Source of the DNA: Calothrix membranacea FACHB-236
GTDB taxonomy: Bacteria > Cyanobacteriota > Cyanobacteriia > Cyanobacteriales > Nostocaceae
Reading direction: 5' to 3'
Length of the DNA: 64,000 bases
Assembly: GCF_014696315.1 (NCBI RefSeq)
Contig: NZ_JACJPX010000004.1
Span: 1 to 64,000 of the forward strand
Below, piece by piece: positions 25,002 to 31,851 of the stretch (positions are counted from its first letter, which is position 1; the number at the start of each line of letters is the position of its first letter). The notes beneath the pieces were generated by a model. It did no database searches. It had not been told where the DNA came from and saw nothing but the letters and a program-made list of their open reading frames with translations. Position numbers and translations under genes: made by a program.

Positions 25002-25149
25002 TTATGCTCAGGAATCCTACTCTTGCAATGCTGTTTTTAACTGAAAATTCCTACAAAACGCAACCGCCAGCCATCAGCAGTTGGCTGTTGTTATTTATAT
25101 TATCAAATTTGAAATTGTAGTATTTGTGTGAGAATTGCCTCTTTCTACT

Positions 25150-25180
25150 CAAACATCCTCTAAGAGGATGTTTGATTTTG
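25150..25180. terminator. Terminator-like hairpin
   Basis: CAAACATCCTC (25150-25160) and GAGGATGTTTG (25164-25174) form a perfect 11-bp stem with a 3-base loop, followed by ATTTTG. No gene clearly ends here on the plus strand, so it may close a small or lost transcript. Confidence 0.55.
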
Positions 25181-25197
25181 CATGTAAAAGTAAGTTG

Positions 25198-25226
25198 AAA
25201 AGACAAAACTGCTGGAATTATGTCTT
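25198..25226 (+). repeat. 29-base hairpin-forming repeat, copy 1
   Basis: The copy starts AAAAGACAAAACT and ends TTATGTCTT. Its AAGACA and TGTCTT arms pair. It matches 25311-25339 at 25 of 29 positions. Both copies lie upstream of the double-glycine peptide gene. Confidence 0.6.
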
Positions 25227-25310
25227 CGAGTAATTTTTCTCTATAAAACCCTAATGCATTATCCATCAAGAAAATCTTTAACTCATTGATATTTTTTTAT
25301 CTGATTAATT

Positions 25311-25339
25311 AAAAGACAAAACTCCTTTAGTTATGTCTT
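25311..25339 (+). repeat. 29-base hairpin-forming repeat, copy 2
   Basis: This second copy begins 113 bases after the first, in the same orientation. The arms are conserved and all four differences fall in the central loop. It begins 143 bases before the ATG of the peptide gene, a suitable position for an operator or leader structure. Confidence 0.6.
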
Positions 25340-25453: not shown

Positions 25454-25666
25454 ATGTCTAGAATTACAATTTCTGACTTGGCTATCGACTCCAATTCTTT
25501 CATCAATGAAGTAGCTGAAAATGAAGCTGCATTCGTAAATGGTGGTTATAATATTGAATTGGTAGGTGGTTTTCTTAAAGGTTATGGTGAATTTGCATTT
25601 AAAATAGCTGAACTATTAGCCAAGACATATTTGAAAGCCCTGAAACTTCTATTAAAGGCATCATAA
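25454..25666 (+). CDS. Putative double-glycine-leader peptide precursor (bacteriocin- or signal-like)
   Basis: This 70-residue peptide has a polar, acidic leader (residues 1-31) that ends in ENEAAFVNGG, a classic double-glycine processing site. The remaining 39 residues are glycine-rich at first and then amphipathic and Lys/Leu-rich (LLAKTYLKALKLLLKAS), with net positive charge and no cysteine. The gene has its own strong terminator and converges on an operon for a C39-peptidase ABC exporter, HlyD adaptor and SurA-like protein. Inference: the C39 domain cleaves after GG30-31 and exports the core peptide. A small antimicrobial or signalling peptide is the likeliest role, but I do not recognise a named family. 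Confidence 0.75.
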   Translation: MSRITISDLAIDSNSFINEVAENEAAFVNGGYNIELVGGFLKGYGEFAFKIAELLAKTYLKALKLLLKAS

Positions 25667-25767
25667 TTACTGTTGATTGAATTACCAGTTATTACTGAAT
25701 TAATAACCAGATGACATCTGAATTAATTAAGCAATAAAATTGGTAATTCTTCCAGAAAAATGCAATT

Positions 25768-25819
25768 AATTTCTCTAGACGCAAAACGCATTTTGTGTTT
25801 AGAGAAATTATTTTTTATT
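25768..25819 (+). terminator. Strong terminator of the peptide precursor gene
   Basis: Arms 25768-25786 and 25791-25809 form a 19-bp stem with a G-T wobble and one mismatch around CGCA, followed by ATTTTTTATT. It isolates the peptide gene as a single transcription unit. Confidence 0.9.
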
Positions 25820-25932
25820 AACCACTTAGTAATCAGCCTGAGATGAACTGAGTAAAAATCTCATTGAGACTTTCATAGATAGTTGTGAAATTTTTTCATT
25901 GGGACTGCTTGGCAATCTGCTTTACTATTACT

Positions 25933-25965
25933 AGATCCCCGACTTCTTTGAGAATTCGGGGATCT
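25933..25965 (-). terminator. Terminator of the exporter operon
   Basis: AGATCCCCGA (25933-25942) pairs with TCGGGGATCT (25956-25965), with further partial pairing of the loop. It lies just beyond the stop of the SurA-like gene, on the side where minus-strand transcription ends. Confidence 0.75.
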
Positions 25966-25988
25966 AAGCTATATGTATAATCTAAATA

Positions 25989-26774
25989 TTATGAAGCTAT
26001 CCTGAGCAATTCCTGAACTGGTTGAGAATAGGAATCTGATTCAAAATGGGGAATAATCTCTAATTGAGCAATTTGTTGTTTTAGCCAATCTGCGAATAAC
26101 TCACCCATAATCTTTAAGCATAACTGCTCGTCTAATTTTGGCTGGATGATTTCTTCTACCCAAATTAGATGTACTTTTTGTGCGATCGCAATAGGTTTGA
26201 GTAACTCTGGAGGATTAGCAATAAACACCGCTGATGCAATATCTGGTTTAAATTCGTGACGATGTTTAATTCCCCTATAACCTCCAGCGCGACGGAGTTC
26301 TGGATTTTGGATATGTTGACGAGTTACGTCTTGGAATGTGATTTCACCTTCACTGACTGCATAAAATAGTTCCCAAGCTAAATCTTCATCATCTAAGACA
26401 ACTTCATAAGTAACAGCAGCTAAATAATTGAGTTGATTTTCATAAAAGTATGGCTCAACTTTATCGGCAAATAAATGATGGGCTAATTTTACTGATATCA
26501 AGTTTCTTTCTGCTAGTTGTTCAAAATCTTCTAAAGAAAGATAATGTTTTTGTAGCCAATTCCAAGTATCTTCGGCTTTGATGAGTCTGTTGGCTGCGCG
26601 CAAAGCATCAGCCGCCTGTTGGAGTTCTTCTACCTCTACTTTAATACCTGCTTCTCTGGCTGTATTAGAGATAATTTTGTGATTGGCGATCGCTTCCAAT
26701 AAATTAGGTACTTGACAGGAAACTTTGACTTGTTCAATAATTTCCTTTTGAGATATATTCAAAATTTTTGACAT
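25989..26774 (-). CDS. SurA/PpiC-like peptidylprolyl isomerase family protein
   Basis: The 261-residue protein has an N-terminal helical chaperone-like region (to about 130) followed by a parvulin-like domain containing GEITFQDVTRQH and RRAGGYRGIKHRHEF near 150-175. The canonical substrate pocket is only partly conserved, so it may be chaperone rather than isomerase. There is no obvious signal peptide, which is usual for cyanobacterial homologues found beside peptide exporters. It is the last gene of the operon, 44 bases after hlyD. Inference: it keeps the leader peptide competent for export or assists release. Confidence 0.82.
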   Translation of the reverse strand: MSKILNISQKEIIEQVKVSCQVPNLLEAIANHKIISNTAREAGIKVEVEELQQAADALRAANRLIKAEDTWNWLQKHYLSLEDFEQLAERNLISVKLAHHLFADKVEPYFYENQLNYLAAVTYEVVLDDEDLAWELFYAVSEGEITFQDVTRQHIQNPELRRAGGYRGIKHRHEFKPDIASAVFIANPPELLKPIAIAQKVHLIWVEEIIQPKLDEQLCLKIMGELFADWLKQQIAQLEIIPHFESDSYSQPVQELLRIAS

Positions 26775-26818
26775 TTGCTATTTCTCCAATATTTTGAATT
26801 TATTTAATCAGCTATTAA

Positions 26819-28345
26819 TTACAGATTCAAACCACCTTTCTGTAATTGTTTAAATGGATCTAAGATGAAATCTATCAGGCGGCGCTGACGTACAATTACC
26901 TCGGCTGTTGCTGTTTGACCAGGGGTTAAAGGAATACGTTTGTTACCTGCTTGGATATCAGATTGATTCAGAGAAATTTCCATTTCAAAAACTTCTATTT
27001 TACCTTGGGGAGTTTCCATCAATTTGGAATCTGGTGAAAGTCGGATAACTTTACCTGTAACTACTCCATAATCTTGGAATGGATAGGCATCAAACTTAAC
27101 TTTGACGGGCATTCCTACCTTCAAAAAACCACTTTCTTGGCTAGGAATATTAGCTTTCATGACAAACGGAATGCCTTGAGGAGAAATTCGGGCAATTGTT
27201 TCACCAGTTTGGACAAATCCTCCTGGCTTTTTAATCGGCATATTAAAAATTACACCATTAAGAGGTGATTTTACTAATCGTTGTGCCAATTGGATTTTGA
27301 TAGAAGTTATTTGGCTTCCAGTTTGGGCTATTTCTGATTTCAGGCTGGTAATTTGGGTTTGCATATCTTTCAGTTGTTCCTGATTTTTTAACAAAGCCAA
27401 TTTACCTGCATGGACTACAGTTTTATAACTATTTTGTTGTTCTTGTAGCCGCAATTTTGCTTGCTGAATATCTGCCTGGGCTTGACGCATTATTCCCTGA
27501 TAACGGTTTTTTTCTTCTTGAAAGCGTAACTTTGCTTGTTTGACATCTGATTCGCTTTGCTCGAATAGTCTTTCACTTTCATCAGCAATTTTTTCTAGTT
27601 CCACAACTTTAATCTGAGGCACTGCACCCTGGTTTCCTAATGGTCGATAACGTTGAATTTCTAATAAATCTCTTTGCCAACGACTGGTAGATAATTTATA
27701 GGCAGTCTGAGTAGAAATTTGGTTTTGTTCAGCCTGACTAACTAACGCTAGTTTCTCCAGTTTTTGTAAATTATAAGTACTCTGTCTCGCATCTAAATTT
27801 TGCTGTGCCTGATTAACTTGGGCAAGTTTTTCTAACTCTTGTGATTGATTTTGTTGTTCTTGTACACCAATTGCTAATCGTAATTGGTTTTTTAGTACTT
27901 CTAGTTGTGCTAGTCGATTTTTTAATCCTTCTAACTTTGCTTGTCCTTGTTGTAAATCAGTTTTTAGAACATTAGAATCTAGTTCTACGAGTAACTGGCC
28001 AGCTTTGACAGTTTCCCCTTCTTTCACCTTGACAGCAATAATATTGCCAGCAGCTTGAGAGTCTAATCTGAGAGTTTCACCTAATGGTTCAATACGACCT
28101 CTAGCGCTTCCTGTCTCATCAACTTGAGACAACATTGCCCAAGGTAAAGCGATCGCACTAAAAACCACCAGCAAATATAATAAGGATCTTGTCCAACGTC
28201 TGGGTAAGGCATCTAGTAGTTCTTCTGTACCGTAATGCCAATCGTGAGCATGATCTGCTATGGCATGATTGTCTTCGATGCTTGTTGATTTATTACTTGC
28301 TTGCTCAGTTAATATCGATGATGAATTACTAGCAGTATTAGGCAT
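26819..28345 (-). CDS. HlyD family periplasmic adaptor of a type I-like exporter
   Basis: The 508-residue protein has a cytoplasmic N-terminus, one transmembrane helix (about residues 54-72), and a biotinyl-lipoyl-like half (GRIEPLGETLRL, VKEGETVKAGQLLVELD). A long Gln/Leu/Lys coiled coil follows (about 120-350), then the second lipoyl half and a beta-barrel with a conserved-type PGQTATAEV segment. It bridges the ABC exporter to the outer membrane. A longer frame to 28471 overlaps the transporter stop; the ATG at 28345 gives a normal HlyD start and a 122-base spacing. Confidence 0.93.
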   Translation of the reverse strand: MPNTASNSSSILTEQASNKSTSIEDNHAIADHAHDWHYGTEELLDALPRRWTRSLLYLLVVFSAIALPWAMLSQVDETGSARGRIEPLGETLRLDSQAAGNIIAVKVKEGETVKAGQLLVELDSNVLKTDLQQGQAKLEGLKNRLAQLEVLKNQLRLAIGVQEQQNQSQELEKLAQVNQAQQNLDARQSTYNLQKLEKLALVSQAEQNQISTQTAYKLSTSRWQRDLLEIQRYRPLGNQGAVPQIKVVELEKIADESERLFEQSESDVKQAKLRFQEEKNRYQGIMRQAQADIQQAKLRLQEQQNSYKTVVHAGKLALLKNQEQLKDMQTQITSLKSEIAQTGSQITSIKIQLAQRLVKSPLNGVIFNMPIKKPGGFVQTGETIARISPQGIPFVMKANIPSQESGFLKVGMPVKVKFDAYPFQDYGVVTGKVIRLSPDSKLMETPQGKIEVFEMEISLNQSDIQAGNKRIPLTPGQTATAEVIVRQRRLIDFILDPFKQLQKGGLNL

Positions 28346-28467
28346 AGTAGAGTGGTGAGTTAGCTCAGATTTTCTGAAATAATAAACTGCTATTTTGCTT
28401 GTGTATTGGCGACAAAATTGCAGAAAAATTATGCTGAATATATGCACCAAAAAGTCTGACTTGGCAA

Positions 28468-31182
28468 TCAAACTGCTTGGGCAAGTTGTTGTTGATTTAG
28501 GTAGTAGTAATGACCTTTTTTAGCGATTAATTCGTCATGAGTACCGCTTTCTATTAATAAGCCGCGATCCAAGACCAAAATTAAATCAGCATTGCGAATT
28601 GTAGAGAGGCGGTGGGCAATAATTAAGCTAGTACGCCCGCATAATATTGTGTTTAAATTGTTCTGAATGATGCGTTCTGACTCTGCATCTAAATGACTGG
28701 TAGCTTCGTCAAAAATTAATAAGCGCGGATTACCTAATAAAGCACGTGCAATTGCTAGACGTTGGCGTTGTCCACCAGATAGCATTCCACCACCTTCTCC
28801 GATTTGGGTTTCGTAACCCATTGGTAATTGTTGAATAAATTCATCTGCACCAGCTAAACGCGCCGCTGCGATAATTTCTGCTAAAGAAGCTTCTGGAACG
28901 GCGATACTAATATTTTCGCGAATTGTACCGCCAAATAAAAACGTATCTTGATCGACAACACCAATTTGAGAACGTAGCGATCGCAACGCTAAACTATTGA
29001 CATCATGACCATCAATGAGAATTTTGCCGTCTGTGGGTGGATATAAACCTAAAATTAGTTTGGCTAGGGTGGTTTTTCCGGAACCGCTACGTCCTACCAA
29101 GGCTACTGTCTGTTCTGGTTGAATTTCAAAACTGAGGTTCTCTAGGACATTAATATCACTATCGGGATGATAGCGGAAGCTCATATTCTCAAAGCGAATA
29201 TGACCGCGGATTGCTGATAAAAATTGACGTGGTTGATGGTGTAAATCTTCTTCGGGTTCGGCTGCAAGTACATCATTAATTCGTTCTGTAGAAATAATTA
29301 CTTCTTGTAATTCATTCCAGAGAACTGTGAGACGTTGAAAGGGATTAATGACGTTACCTAACAACATATTGAAAGCAACTAATTGCCCAATTGTGAGTTG
29401 ATTTTGAATTACTAACCAAGCGCCAAACCAGAGTAATCCTGTAGTGGCTAAAGTTTCAATGGTCGAACTAAAAACTTGCATTCGGTTACCAATTACTTGA
29501 CCACCAAACATTTTTTTAGTCAAATTATTCAGTAATTCTTCCCAACGCCAGCGCACAGTTTGTTCAATTGCCATTGAGCGAATAGAACGAATACCTGTGA
29601 GAGATTGTATTAAATAACTATTCTCCTTAGCTAAAGCCTGAAAAACTTCTCGACTAATCCGGCGAAAAAAGGGTGTAGCAACCAGTGCCAAAATTAAAAA
29701 TGGTGGTACGATTGCCAGGGCTAGCAATGCCATTTGCCAGCTATACCAAAACATTAATCCTACATAGATAAATACTGTCAATAAATCCAAAATAATTGAC
29801 AGTGCTTCACCTGTAAGAAAACGCTGAATTTTCTGATTTTCTTGCACGCGAGAAACAATATCACCGACGTAGCGCGACTCAAAAAATGCTAAAGGTAAGC
29901 GGAATGTATGTTTAATAAAACCTACCATTAACGCTACACCGATGCGGTTAGCTGTGTGATCTAGTAAGTATTGTCTGAGTCCGTTGAGGGCGACACGGAA
30001 TAAACCAAAAATCACCAAACCGCAACCTACAGCAGTTAAGGTGAGAGTGCTACCTTGAACAATTACTCTATCCAAAAGTAATTGAGTAAATAGAGGTGTA
30101 ATTAATCCAAATAACTGGATAAATACAGAGGCGATAAAAACTTCTAGTAAGACTAACCAATGAGGTTTAACTAACTCAAATAACTGCCAAAATGGTGTAT
30201 TAGCTTCTTCGCTTTCTTTGAAGAGGGCGGTAGGTTGCAATAATAAAGCATAACCAGTCCACCCAGATTGAAATTGAGTATGGGTAAGGGTACGTTGACC
30301 GATCGCCGGATCGCCCACAATTACCTGTTTTTTGGTAACCTCATAAACGACAATATAATGATTACCTTCCCAATGGGCGATCGCAGGTAGTGGTTGTTGA
30401 GCTAATTTATCTAGGCTAGCTTTAACTGGACGGCTAGCAAAACCAATACTTTCAGCGGCTGTGGCTAAACCTCGCAGTGAAACCCCGACGCGGTTGACGT
30501 TAGCTAACTCTCGCAATCTATTGATACTAAAGCGTTTACCCCAATAGCGCCCTAGCATAACTAAGCAAGCTACACCACAATCAGTAGCGCTTTGTTGTTC
30601 AAAGAAAGGATAGCGTTTAGTTAGCTGTGCCCATAAATGTCTGGCTTTGGTGTGAGGCGTGGGGAAATAAGCCCGTTGTTGCTGCTTTTTTGGGGTGGAT
30701 TGTGTGGGAAACGGGATAACATTGGGAATGGAAGATTGGCGATTATCTTGATGTTCCTGGGAATTAGACAACTGTGCCAATTGCTTTGCACGGGCTAAAA
30801 GGCGATCGCAGATTTTGGGATATTTAGCCATCAAAGTCTGCAATATCTCTATGTTGAGATAACAGAGTTTTAAATTTGTTGAAGCCCTCGCCGCATAAAA
30901 GCTCAAGTTTTCTTTAGTAAATAAAGTGATTTCACCAAATGATGACCCAGCTGCAAGAGTAGAAATTAAGTTACCATCAATATTTAGTAATCTGACTTTA
31001 CCCGTCAAGACTAAGTAAATTCCAGCTTGAGCATCTTTTGATTGCCAAAATAGTTTTGCTACGGCTGGTTCCACAATTTCAATTTTTGTCCAGCAAGTCT
31101 GCAATTCTCTCTCTGTTAGCTTTTCACCCAAATTATGATTTAGTAATTGACCTAATTGTTCTTGAGAAAAATTTGTTGTCAT
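28468..31182 (-). CDS. ABC exporter with cyclic-nucleotide-binding-like and C39 peptidase domains
   Basis: This 904-residue fusion has four parts. Residues of about 30-150 form a cNMP-binding-like domain (GIYLVLTGKVRLL, GSSFGEITLF). Residues of about 195-320 form a C39 double-glycine peptidase with catalytic C202 in SATDCGVAC, the His in WEGNHYIVVY and the Asp in VGDPAIG. A six-helix exporter domain spans about 340-620. The nucleotide-binding domain has GRSGSGKTT, LSGGQRQRLAIARA and LLIFDEATSHLD. It should cleave GG leaders and export the product using ATP. A regulatory ligand for the N-terminal domain is possible but unproven. The gene starts 21 bases after the HTH gene. Confidence 0.96.
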   Translation of the reverse strand: MTTNFSQEQLGQLLNHNLGEKLTERELQTCWTKIEIVEPAVAKLFWQSKDAQAGIYLVLTGKVRLLNIDGNLISTLAAGSSFGEITLFTKENLSFYAARASTNLKLCYLNIEILQTLMAKYPKICDRLLARAKQLAQLSNSQEHQDNRQSSIPNVIPFPTQSTPKKQQQRAYFPTPHTKARHLWAQLTKRYPFFEQQSATDCGVACLVMLGRYWGKRFSINRLRELANVNRVGVSLRGLATAAESIGFASRPVKASLDKLAQQPLPAIAHWEGNHYIVVYEVTKKQVIVGDPAIGQRTLTHTQFQSGWTGYALLLQPTALFKESEEANTPFWQLFELVKPHWLVLLEVFIASVFIQLFGLITPLFTQLLLDRVIVQGSTLTLTAVGCGLVIFGLFRVALNGLRQYLLDHTANRIGVALMVGFIKHTFRLPLAFFESRYVGDIVSRVQENQKIQRFLTGEALSIILDLLTVFIYVGLMFWYSWQMALLALAIVPPFLILALVATPFFRRISREVFQALAKENSYLIQSLTGIRSIRSMAIEQTVRWRWEELLNNLTKKMFGGQVIGNRMQVFSSTIETLATTGLLWFGAWLVIQNQLTIGQLVAFNMLLGNVINPFQRLTVLWNELQEVIISTERINDVLAAEPEEDLHHQPRQFLSAIRGHIRFENMSFRYHPDSDINVLENLSFEIQPEQTVALVGRSGSGKTTLAKLILGLYPPTDGKILIDGHDVNSLALRSLRSQIGVVDQDTFLFGGTIRENISIAVPEASLAEIIAAARLAGADEFIQQLPMGYETQIGEGGGMLSGGQRQRLAIARALLGNPRLLIFDEATSHLDAESERIIQNNLNTILCGRTSLIIAHRLSTIRNADLILVLDRGLLIESGTHDELIAKKGHYYYLNQQQLAQAV

Positions 31183-31203
31183 TCTTGTTTTGATATTCCA
31201 AAT

Positions 31204-31827
31204 TTATCTATTAATGTGAACTAGATTGAATGATTGATATATATGAGCATCACTATGAGATTGTAAGTCACTGATTCTCACACCAGTAGCCTTGAGTTCT
31301 TGAGAATCTACTTTTTTAGATAAGCGTTGTTTTTGAGTAGCTAAACCCATATCTTTGAGTAAGCGATTAATGTGGCGATTGCTAATCTCAATGCCAAATT
31401 CAGTAGCCAAATGTTTGCTTAACCATTGAGATGTCCAACTACTAAATGCATAACCATAATTGCGGGGGCTATGACTGAGCAATTCTTTTAATCTGGCTAT
31501 ATATTGTTGATTTACTGTTTTTGGTCTACCGATTGGTTTTTGTTGCCATTGCTCCGCTAAACCTGCTTTGGCAATAGTAATCCAGTAACGTGCCATTTCC
31601 TGAGAACAACCTAAAAGCTGGCAAATTTCTGTTTGGGATTTGCCCATATCTGCCAACAGCATAATTTCTAATCTCTTACGATATTCTGGTTGCAGATTCG
31701 CTTGTAAATTTTTTAATAAATGCTGATGTTGTTCGGGTGTGAAAAACTTATTTCCCGGATTTTCAAATTTATTTTGTGACATCCAATTTACCGCTAAATC
31801 TAAATAATGTCCCAATACATCTACCAT
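31204..31827 (-). CDS. Helix-turn-helix protein resembling the N-terminus of IS630-type transposases
   Basis: The 207-residue product contains two DNA-binding units. A helix-turn-helix lies near residues 60-95 (KSQTEICQLLGCSQEMARYWI), and a winged-helix segment near 115-160 (SQWLSKHLATEFGIEISNRH). These resemble the N-terminal region of IS630/Tc1-type transposases, but no DDE catalytic domain follows and the frame ends in a short polar tail. It is the first gene of the exporter operon (21 bases to the next start). Inference: a domesticated transposase DNA-binding module acting as the local regulator. ATG at 31827 is preferred over the start at 31851. Confidence 0.75.
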   Translation of the reverse strand: MVDVLGHYLDLAVNWMSQNKFENPGNKFFTPEQHQHLLKNLQANLQPEYRKRLEIMLLADMGKSQTEICQLLGCSQEMARYWITIAKAGLAEQWQQKPIGRPKTVNQQYIARLKELLSHSPRNYGYAFSSWTSQWLSKHLATEFGIEISNRHINRLLKDMGLATQKQRLSKKVDSQELKATGVRISDLQSHSDAHIYQSFNLVHINR

Positions 31828-31851
31828 TGTGCTGTCCTGAAGATTGCACAA

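What the first reader, a model, noticed from the sequence alone, without database searches (positions are those of the whole stretch)
25454..31827. Candidate exported-peptide (bacteriocin or signal) system with an unrecognised precursor
A 70-residue peptide with a GG leader (GG at 30-31) and a cationic, Cys-free 39-residue core faces an operon for an HTH regulator, a C39-peptidase/ABC exporter, HlyD and a SurA-like protein. C39 exporters are known to cut GG leaders. That this exporter serves this peptide is inferred from proximity. The peptide matches no family I recognise, and lack of Cys argues against lanthipeptide chemistry.
Basis: partly seen in the sequence, partly recalled or inferred. 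Interest (0 to 1): 0.78.

Follow-up and report, generated by a model that had tools for sequence, protein, structure and literature searches.

The report
Cyanobacterial double-glycine peptide export cassette
A filamentous cyanobacterium carries a small peptide gene with a conserved export tag and a fast-changing payload beside a cutting-and-exporting machine, whose DNA-binding first gene ends in a stretch resembling the start of that tag, a lead for how export and gene control might be linked.

Summary
In detail: a 70-aa GG-leader peptide (25454-25666, +) faces an HTH / cNMP-C39-ABC / HlyD / PpiC-SurA-like operon. The pairing is more than proximity. In 192 family genomes close homologues occur in 17 (own included), all beside this cassette in the same facing arrangement; their exporters form one branch, 98/95. 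The leader is near-invariant while the core can be replaced: against a same-genus relative, leader and promoter DNA are 96% identical and the core 50%, the level of shuffled sequence. The cassette is the known cyanobacterial 'bacteriocin' group I kind (Wang 2011); the peptide is an unnamed, Cys-free, probably helical precursor type. 'Cationic' is not conserved.

Two further features, not met in my literature searches: (i) a palindrome GACAWAAYT-N5-ARTTWTGTC, twice upstream of the peptide and overrepresented family-wide; (ii) the IS630-like HTH protein, lacking a catalytic domain, ends in a disordered tail resembling the leader's start, [IV]xIxDL in 60 of 63 such proteins against 1 of 468 others. 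I propose that regulator and precursor share a docking partner, coupling export to transcription. Export by this cassette is well supported; the peptide's role and the docking idea are untested.

The parts
25454..25666 (+). GG-leader precursor peptide, 70 aa (leader 1-31, core 32-70)
   Evidence: leader conserved, core variable; close homologues in 17 of 192 family genomes, own included
25463..25480 (+). N-terminal leader motif ITISDL (residues 4-9)
   Evidence: I4 and L9 invariant in 18 rows, D8 at least 90%
25541..25546 (+). Gly-Gly, predicted C39 cleavage site after G31
   Evidence: N29-G30-G31 invariant in 18 rows; cleavage inferred
25202..25224 (+). distal palindrome GACAAAACT-GCTGG-AATTATGTC, candidate operator
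25315..25337 (+). proximal palindrome GACAAAACT-CCTTT-AGTTATGTC, candidate operator, starting 113 bp after the distal one
25989..26774 (-). PpiC/SurA-like protein (261 aa), no strongly hydrophobic N-terminus
   Evidence: Rotamase_2 E 1.3e-4 (below cut-off); TIGR04500 60.5 bits (below cut-off 180)
26819..28471 (-). HlyD-family adaptor
   Evidence: TIGR01843 223 bits, over cut-off
28468..31182 (-). cNMP-binding + C39 peptidase + ABC exporter (904 aa), 'long type'
   Evidence: PF00027, PF03412, PF00664, PF00005 all over cut-off; motifs
31204..31851 (-). IS630-type double-HTH DNA-binding protein without catalytic domain, first gene of the operon, about 25 bp before the exporter
   Evidence: (matches 1-120 of 299 of the IS630 model, below cut-off)
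31258..31281 (-). leader-like C-terminal tail VRISDLQS of the HTH protein (residues 183-190 of 207)
   Evidence: (region 165-207 low confidence, as for disorder)

Best explanation
The 70-aa peptide is a precursor that the facing cassette matures and exports: the C39 domain cuts after Gly31, and the ABC/HlyD pair (with a TolC-like channel elsewhere) releases a 39-aa, probably unmodified, hydrophobic helical core; the cytoplasmic PpiC/SurA-like protein would handle the precursor. The core changes by replacement while leader and promoter stay fixed, which fits a peptide under diversifying selection, most likely an antagonistic (bacteriocin-like) or self-recognition peptide rather than a structural one. 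The gene is probably controlled through the twin palindrome, with the cassette's HTH protein the leading candidate to bind it. Shown by sequence: co-inheritance, conserved leader, replaced core, palindromes, HTH tail motif. Inferred: cleavage, export, regulator-operator pairing, biological role. The confidence given is for maturation and export by this cassette; for the antagonistic or self-recognition role alone I would say about 0.5.
For: Close homologues in 17 of 192 family genomes (own included), 17 of 17 beside the SurA-like gene in facing orientation; the 17 best SurA matches are those same 17 genomes, though rank 18 is only 6 bits lower; in a 57-row exporter tree the 18 exporters of this type make an exclusive branch, 98/95. 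Across 59 cassette loci, pattern-defined GG precursors within 5 kb of the 3' end: 106 on the facing strand, 0 on the same strand; 44 of 53 loci with >=4.5 kb downstream have at least one, and 26 of 35 when loci chosen through the peptide are left out. Window vs L041: leader DNA 96%, upstream 250 bp 96%, SurA-like gene 94%, core 50% (shuffled core mean 55%). No Cys in 19 of 19 cores. AlphaFold: helices 6-28 and 34-69, mean pLDDT 67, pTM 0.32. Palindromes (<=2 mismatches) 56 in those loci, 1.05 expected from shuffles.
Against: No immunity gene seen beside the peptide: the only other ORF upstream looks unconserved by eye, unusual for a bacteriocin. The genome has 11 C39-domain matches, so another exporter could serve it. 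Core charge ranges 0 to +5. The core model has moderate confidence. 9 of 53 cassettes lack a pattern-defined precursor within 5 kb. No expression or product data.
Confidence: 0.8

Rival explanations
1. The core is a biofilm-matrix or cell-surface protein, like EbfG1-4 of Synechococcus elongatus, which also carry GG motifs and need the C39 protein PteB for efficient secretion.
For: PMC4997328 and PMC9981879 (passages) report GG-motif proteins of a cyanobacterium acting in biofilm, with amyloid-forming members. No immunity gene seen here.
Against: Predicted helical 39-aa core, replaced between close relatives while leader and promoter are fixed; a structural component would be expected to keep its sequence.
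Confidence: 0.2
2. The core is a cell-cell signal (pheromone) read by a receptor of the same strain; core replacement reflects specificity groups.
For: Leader fixed, core swapped at an otherwise conserved locus; single small precursor in the window; no immunity gene seen.
Against: No receptor or histidine kinase was seen among the proteins scanned (4 of the cassette, 10 neighbours); the regulator in the operon has a leader-like, not core-like, tail.
Confidence: 0.3
3. The regulator's leader-like tail is coincidence or an offshoot of the HTH fold, and the palindrome is bound by an unrelated regulator.
For: The HTH domain itself holds a related string (IEISDRHI), the best-scoring window in 12 of the 49 HTH proteins among the top 80; the window's own tail (11.3) scores below every leader (lowest 12.9) and below two unrelated proteins (11.5). 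Palindromes also precede precursors in loci with no HTH gene in the fetched stretch of about 6 kb either side. Two A1-type loci (L043, L044) have no palindrome. None lies before the HTH/exporter operon of the window.
Against: The strict motif is in the last 40 residues of 60 of 63 HTH proteins and 1 of 468 other ORFs of the same loci; it follows a less conserved linker and persists where the linker is shortened (L240, L246); 0 of 5 homologues without a cassette have it.
Confidence: 0.5

Closest known systems
Group I cyanobacterial bacteriocin gene clusters (Wang, Fewer, Sivonen 2011, PMC3140520; abstract, section 6 and passages seen)
   Same: Long-type CAP_ED-C39-ABC exporter, HlyD and SurA-like gene, with short double-glycine precursors nearby; group I reported in all but one of 58 genomes
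   Different: The main text holds none of the words helix-turn-helix, HTH, regulator or palindrom-; it reports 0.35 precursors per group I cluster. I did not see its Table S3, so whether this precursor type is listed there is unknown.
EbfG1-4 / PteB of Synechococcus elongatus (PMC4997328, PMC9981879; passages seen)
   Same: Small GG-motif proteins whose efficient secretion needs the C39 cysteine of an exporter
   Different: The paper states that mature EbfG proteins have no homology to proteins of other cyanobacteria; role is biofilm; I did not compare sequences
HetC of Nostoc PCC 7120 (PMC10986499; passages seen)
   Same: A peptidase-containing ABC exporter of a heterocyst-forming cyanobacterium
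   Different: Its substrate is unknown and the authors found no GG-leader gene near hetC; not compared by sequence here
Class II bacteriocins with GG leaders (recalled)
   Same: GG leader, C39-ABC plus accessory protein, short core without lanthionines
   Different: No dedicated immunity gene seen; Gram-negative host with HlyD; no activity data
IS630 transposase DNA-binding domain (NF033545)
   Same: HTH protein matches its N-terminal 120 positions
   Different: No catalytic domain; present with the exporter in 49 of 49 testable loci; leader-like tail

Membership tests
Group I cyanobacterial bacteriocin cluster (Wang 2011) | Long-type exporter: CAP_ED/cNMP + C39 + ABC | tested here: met
   all domains over Pfam cut-off
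Group I cyanobacterial bacteriocin cluster (Wang 2011) | HlyD and SurA-like (rotamase) gene in the cluster | tested here: met
   HlyD over cut-off, rotamase match below cut-off but E 1.3e-4
Group I cyanobacterial bacteriocin cluster (Wang 2011) | Exporter falls in the group I clade of their tree | not tested
   their sequences were not used
NHLP / Nif11 (N11P) precursors | Leader matches the family models | tested here: not met
   window peptide: no Pfam or NCBIfam model at E <= 1; 18 members against NCBIfam: two unrelated models matched one member each, no precursor model. That these libraries hold the NHLP and Nif11 models is recalled.
Lanthipeptide (LanM type) | Cys in core and a lanthionine synthetase nearby | tested here: not met
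   no Cys in 19 cores; none among the cassette proteins and 10 neighbours
Class II bacteriocin | GG leader cut by a C39 exporter | tested here: inconclusive
   leader and exporter present and co-inherited; cleavage not shown
Class II bacteriocin | Dedicated immunity gene | tested here: inconclusive
   no conserved small ORF seen next to the peptide, judged by eye; elsewhere in the genome not sought
Class II bacteriocin | Antimicrobial activity | not testable with these tools
   needs assay
TIGR04500 peptide maturation protein | Score over curated cut-off (180 bits) | tested here: not met
   60.5 bits over residues 24-240: related, not a member
IS630 transposase | DDE catalytic domain | tested here: not met
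   215 aa; matches only model positions 1-120 of 299, 79.3 bits against a cut-off of 100; exporter starts about 25 bp later

The most novel reading that the evidence does not exclude
The cassette's DNA-binding protein carries a mimic of the export leader's N-terminal docking motif ([IV]xIxDL) on a disordered C-terminal tail. Precursor leaders and the regulator compete for one partner (exporter, its cNMP domain, or the SurA-like protein), so the amount of unexported precursor sets how much regulator is free to act at the palindromes upstream of precursor genes: secretion-coupled transcription in a peptidase-containing ABC exporter, widespread in cyanobacteria.
Probability: 0.3. Interest if true: 0.85.

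Novelty: new variant of a known kind. Interest (0 to 1): 0.62.

Why it matters
Group I cassettes were reported in all but one of the 58 cyanobacterial genomes examined in 2011, with only 0.35 precursors per cluster assigned (PMC3140520), and I found nothing in print on how they are controlled. This work ties one exporter branch to one precursor type, shows that the core can be exchanged while leader and promoter are kept, and gives two testable handles: a palindrome that may help find further precursors, and a leader-like tail on the cassette's DNA-binding protein. If the tail works as proposed, export load would feed back on transcription in this exporter class.

Tried and rejected
Own-genome search for paralogues of the peptide: only itself by sequence at E <= 1; one weak leader-only match (E 0.02) at another cassette by profile. 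A sample of 386 phylum genomes: only the own genome at E <= 1e-4 (none of the other 16 carriers matched there, so the sample seems not to hold them), which (10 loci, tblastn-confirmed) suggests a narrow spread; plasmid collection: no match. RNA-hairpin reading of the palindrome: set aside because the two arms are not fully complementary in the window group, which fits a DNA site better; not tested formally. A palindrome upstream of the HTH/exporter operon: none found in the window at up to 4 mismatches; only a half-site resemblance by eye. Solved-structure search for the HTH protein: best E 0.039; fold search: no match at E <= 0.001, weak paired-domain resemblance (Pax-6, E 0.45). PADLOC: matches only for the ABC exporter, mad3 and mad8 models. 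The B-type second precursor was sought beside the window peptide and not found. ORF 25051-25269 (-) was rejected as a gene by eye: indels in relatives break the frame. Pattern-defined precursors within 350 bp of distinct palindrome places are 18 of 48 against 199 of 2000 random positions in the same loci; by eye more places have precursors that the pattern misses, but I rest on the counted figure. The first control for the tail had not been cleared of HTH proteins and was redone.

Literature searches: seven, three of them aimed at a regulator, repeat or docking. Passages were read in PMC3140520, PMC4997328, PMC10986499 and PMC9981879, and one whole section in PMC3140520; every other paper was seen as a listing only.
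Full report
WHAT IS THERE. The peptide ORF (25454-25666, +, 70 aa) and the facing operon are as described. The exporter has cNMP-binding, C39, ABC membrane and ABC ATPase domains, all over the Pfam cut-offs, with the expected catalytic and nucleotide-binding strings (motif identities recalled). HlyD passes TIGR01843. The SurA-like protein is a weak PpiC relative, nearest TIGR04500 but far under its cut-off, without a strongly hydrophobic N-terminus. The HTH protein matches only the DNA-binding part of the IS630 transposase model. Ten further ORFs between 16.9 and 37.6 kb, of 22 ORFs of 130 aa or more listed from 14 to 43 kb (four of them the cassette), are ordinary: transporter parts, helicase, WD40, CobW, hydrolase and so on.

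DOES THE EXPORTER BELONG TO THE PEPTIDE? In 192 family genomes the peptide has matches at E <= 7.1e-12 in 17 genomes, own included (18 matches, two in G022); the next match is at 2e-4. In all 17 the SurA-like gene lies within 1.5 kb and faces the peptide. Larger stretches of the 16 relatives all hold the four genes. The 17 best matches to the SurA-like protein are in the same 17 genomes, but the 18th is only 6 bits lower, so I relied on a tree of the exporter: of 57 rows, the 18 loci with this precursor type (these 17 plus a named Tolypothrix contig, L104) form a branch of their own with support 98/95. The tool's shuffle test there compared them with only three other labelled rows and adds little. 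In a 386-genome phylum sample only the own genome matched; plasmids gave none. Weak matches in other genomes were only partly examined; those read are other GG-leader precursors.

GENERALITY OF THE ARRANGEMENT. Of 60 loci fetched, two had no SurA-like gene (L056, L057) and one duplicated another (L101); with the window and L104, 59 were scanned. They were picked by best peptide or SurA match, not at random. A leader pattern, written, found 106 precursors within 5 kb downstream of the SurA-like gene on the facing strand and none on the same strand; 8 and 3 lay upstream. Six loci had under 4.5 kb downstream; of the other 53, 44 had at least one precursor and 9 none. Without the 16 A1-type loci and two (L055, L058) chosen by a weak peptide match, it is 26 of 35.

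CORE REPLACEMENT. In the alignment of 18 homologues M1, I4, L9, S13, S15, F16, N18, E19, E24 and V28-G31 are invariant in the leader and only G45 in the core. Between the window and L041 of the same genus, leader DNA is 96% identical, the upstream 250 bp 96%, the SurA-like gene 94%, but the core 50%; shuffled cores average 55%. Nearer relatives (L039, L040) keep the core at 94-95%, and L104 at 74%. Cores have no Cys in 19 of 19 and charges of 0 to +5. The model shows a leader helix and a core helix, mean pLDDT 67, pTM 0.32.

PALINDROMES. The window has two copies, 25202-25224 and 25315-25337; the own genome has no other exact copy, and its four other matches at two mismatches are at the level of the reversed control (five). 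Among the 18 loci of this type, 15 have at least one copy with at most two mismatches; L043 and L044 have none and L052 ends too soon. Over 59 loci there are 56 copies against 1.05 expected. Over 106 precursor upstream regions, 24 have a copy with at most 3 mismatches of 18 where 0.1 is expected, at 97-147 or 201-230 bp before the ATG; 15 of the 24 are A1-type loci and 9 others, and 82 regions, many of them later genes of tandem arrays, have none. The motif was defined on some of these loci, and relatedness is not removed. Exact copies occur in 80 of 192 family genomes and the reversed control in none. In a 386-genome phylum sample exact copies occur in 29, the HTH family (E <= 1e-25) in 55, both in 27; the two exceptions are small genomes of a family (f31) where the reversed control also matches, in five genomes. 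Outside the family but in the order, 3 of 13 genomes with the HTH family have it and 0 of 49 without (Fisher 0.0076); the 13 include G318 and G327, whose fetched matches are without a cassette. In G477, of another family, two copies lie about 240 bp before two GG precursors of an HTH cassette. Against: palindromes also precede precursors in loci without an HTH gene in the stretch fetched, one with a radical-SAM-like gene, and only 18 of 48 distinct places had a pattern-defined precursor within 350 bp, against 199 of 2000 random positions in the same loci (p 3.5e-7).

THE REGULATOR'S TAIL. An HTH gene is present in 49 of 49 cassettes with at least 800 bp upstream of the exporter; the gap is exactly 25 bp in 23 of them and 21 to 401 bp in all but L044, where the measured hit was a neighbouring copy although one also lies before the exporter. 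Its last 40 residues carry [IV]xIxDL in 60 of 63 proteins, and in 1 of 468 other ORFs of 150 aa or more from the same loci. Of the three misses L113 ends before the tail, L115 has ILIGDLKA further from its end, L182 was not resolved. These 63 are homologous, so this is one evolutionary event, not 60. A leader weight matrix from 63 unique leader 8-mers was run over 441 other proteins (179,968 windows): the 31 best proteins were 30 HTH proteins, 29 of them at the tail, and one precursor interrupted by an assembly gap. But 12 HTH proteins scored best at a related string within the HTH domain, and the window's own tail (11.3) lies below the lowest leader score (12.9) and below two unrelated proteins (11.5), so chance likeness is not excluded. 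In A2 the motif is more conserved (0.78) than the linker (0.56), about as the HTH domain (0.82), and the model gives residues 165-207 low confidence, as for a disordered tail. In 20 further loci, 11 of 15 cassette-linked HTH proteins have a loose form of the motif (misses L229, L231, L236, and L244 unresolved), and 0 of 5 homologues without a cassette do; of these five, two are transposase copies of one genome and two look broken or cut short.

MECHANISM. Shown by sequence: co-inheritance, leader conservation, core replacement, palindromes, tail motif. Inferred from knowledge of C39 exporters (PMC10986499 passages): cleavage after GG and export. Inferred and untested: HTH binding to the palindrome, docking competition, and the peptide's role.

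KNOWN OR NEW. The cassette matches group I of Wang et al. 2011 by gene content (abstract, section 6 and passages read); I did not place it in their tree. The precursor type has no model in the libraries searched. I met no report of the palindrome or the tail in seven searches, three aimed at such things, in a library limited to open papers; Table S3 of Wang et al. was not available to me.

Noticed in passing
L113, L114, L115 (own genome, contigs C78, C7, C120): Three further cassettes with HTH, C39-ABC, HlyD and SurA-like genes in the own genome with other precursor types, including Cys-rich ones in L114; the genome has 11 C39-domain matches.
   Followed up: partly
L063, L067, L068, L069, L072, L076, L077, L079, L080, L091: A second SurA-like match lies downstream and facing the first in these cassettes; where identity was seen it was low (about 24-26% in L187, L188).
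   Followed up: no
L143/L188 (G003, near cassette L063) and L142 (G141): A palindrome lies 190 and 125 bp before a 387-aa gene; cassette L063 had no pattern-defined precursor within 5 kb; the surroundings of L142 were not looked at.
   Followed up: no
L153/L183: Twin palindromes about 120 bp before a GG precursor followed by a gene with a CxxxCxxC radical-SAM-like string (naming recalled).
   Followed up: no
L042, L043, L044, L046, L047, L052, L053, L054: These eight loci carry a second conserved precursor (core like NPFSIFANTLLKAFAAYLIYLIVTD) between the A1-type gene and the SurA-like gene, perhaps a two-peptide product.
   Followed up: partly
L050:13693-14319: The HTH gene of this locus has an in-frame stop although precursor, palindromes and exporter genes are present.
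   Followed up: no
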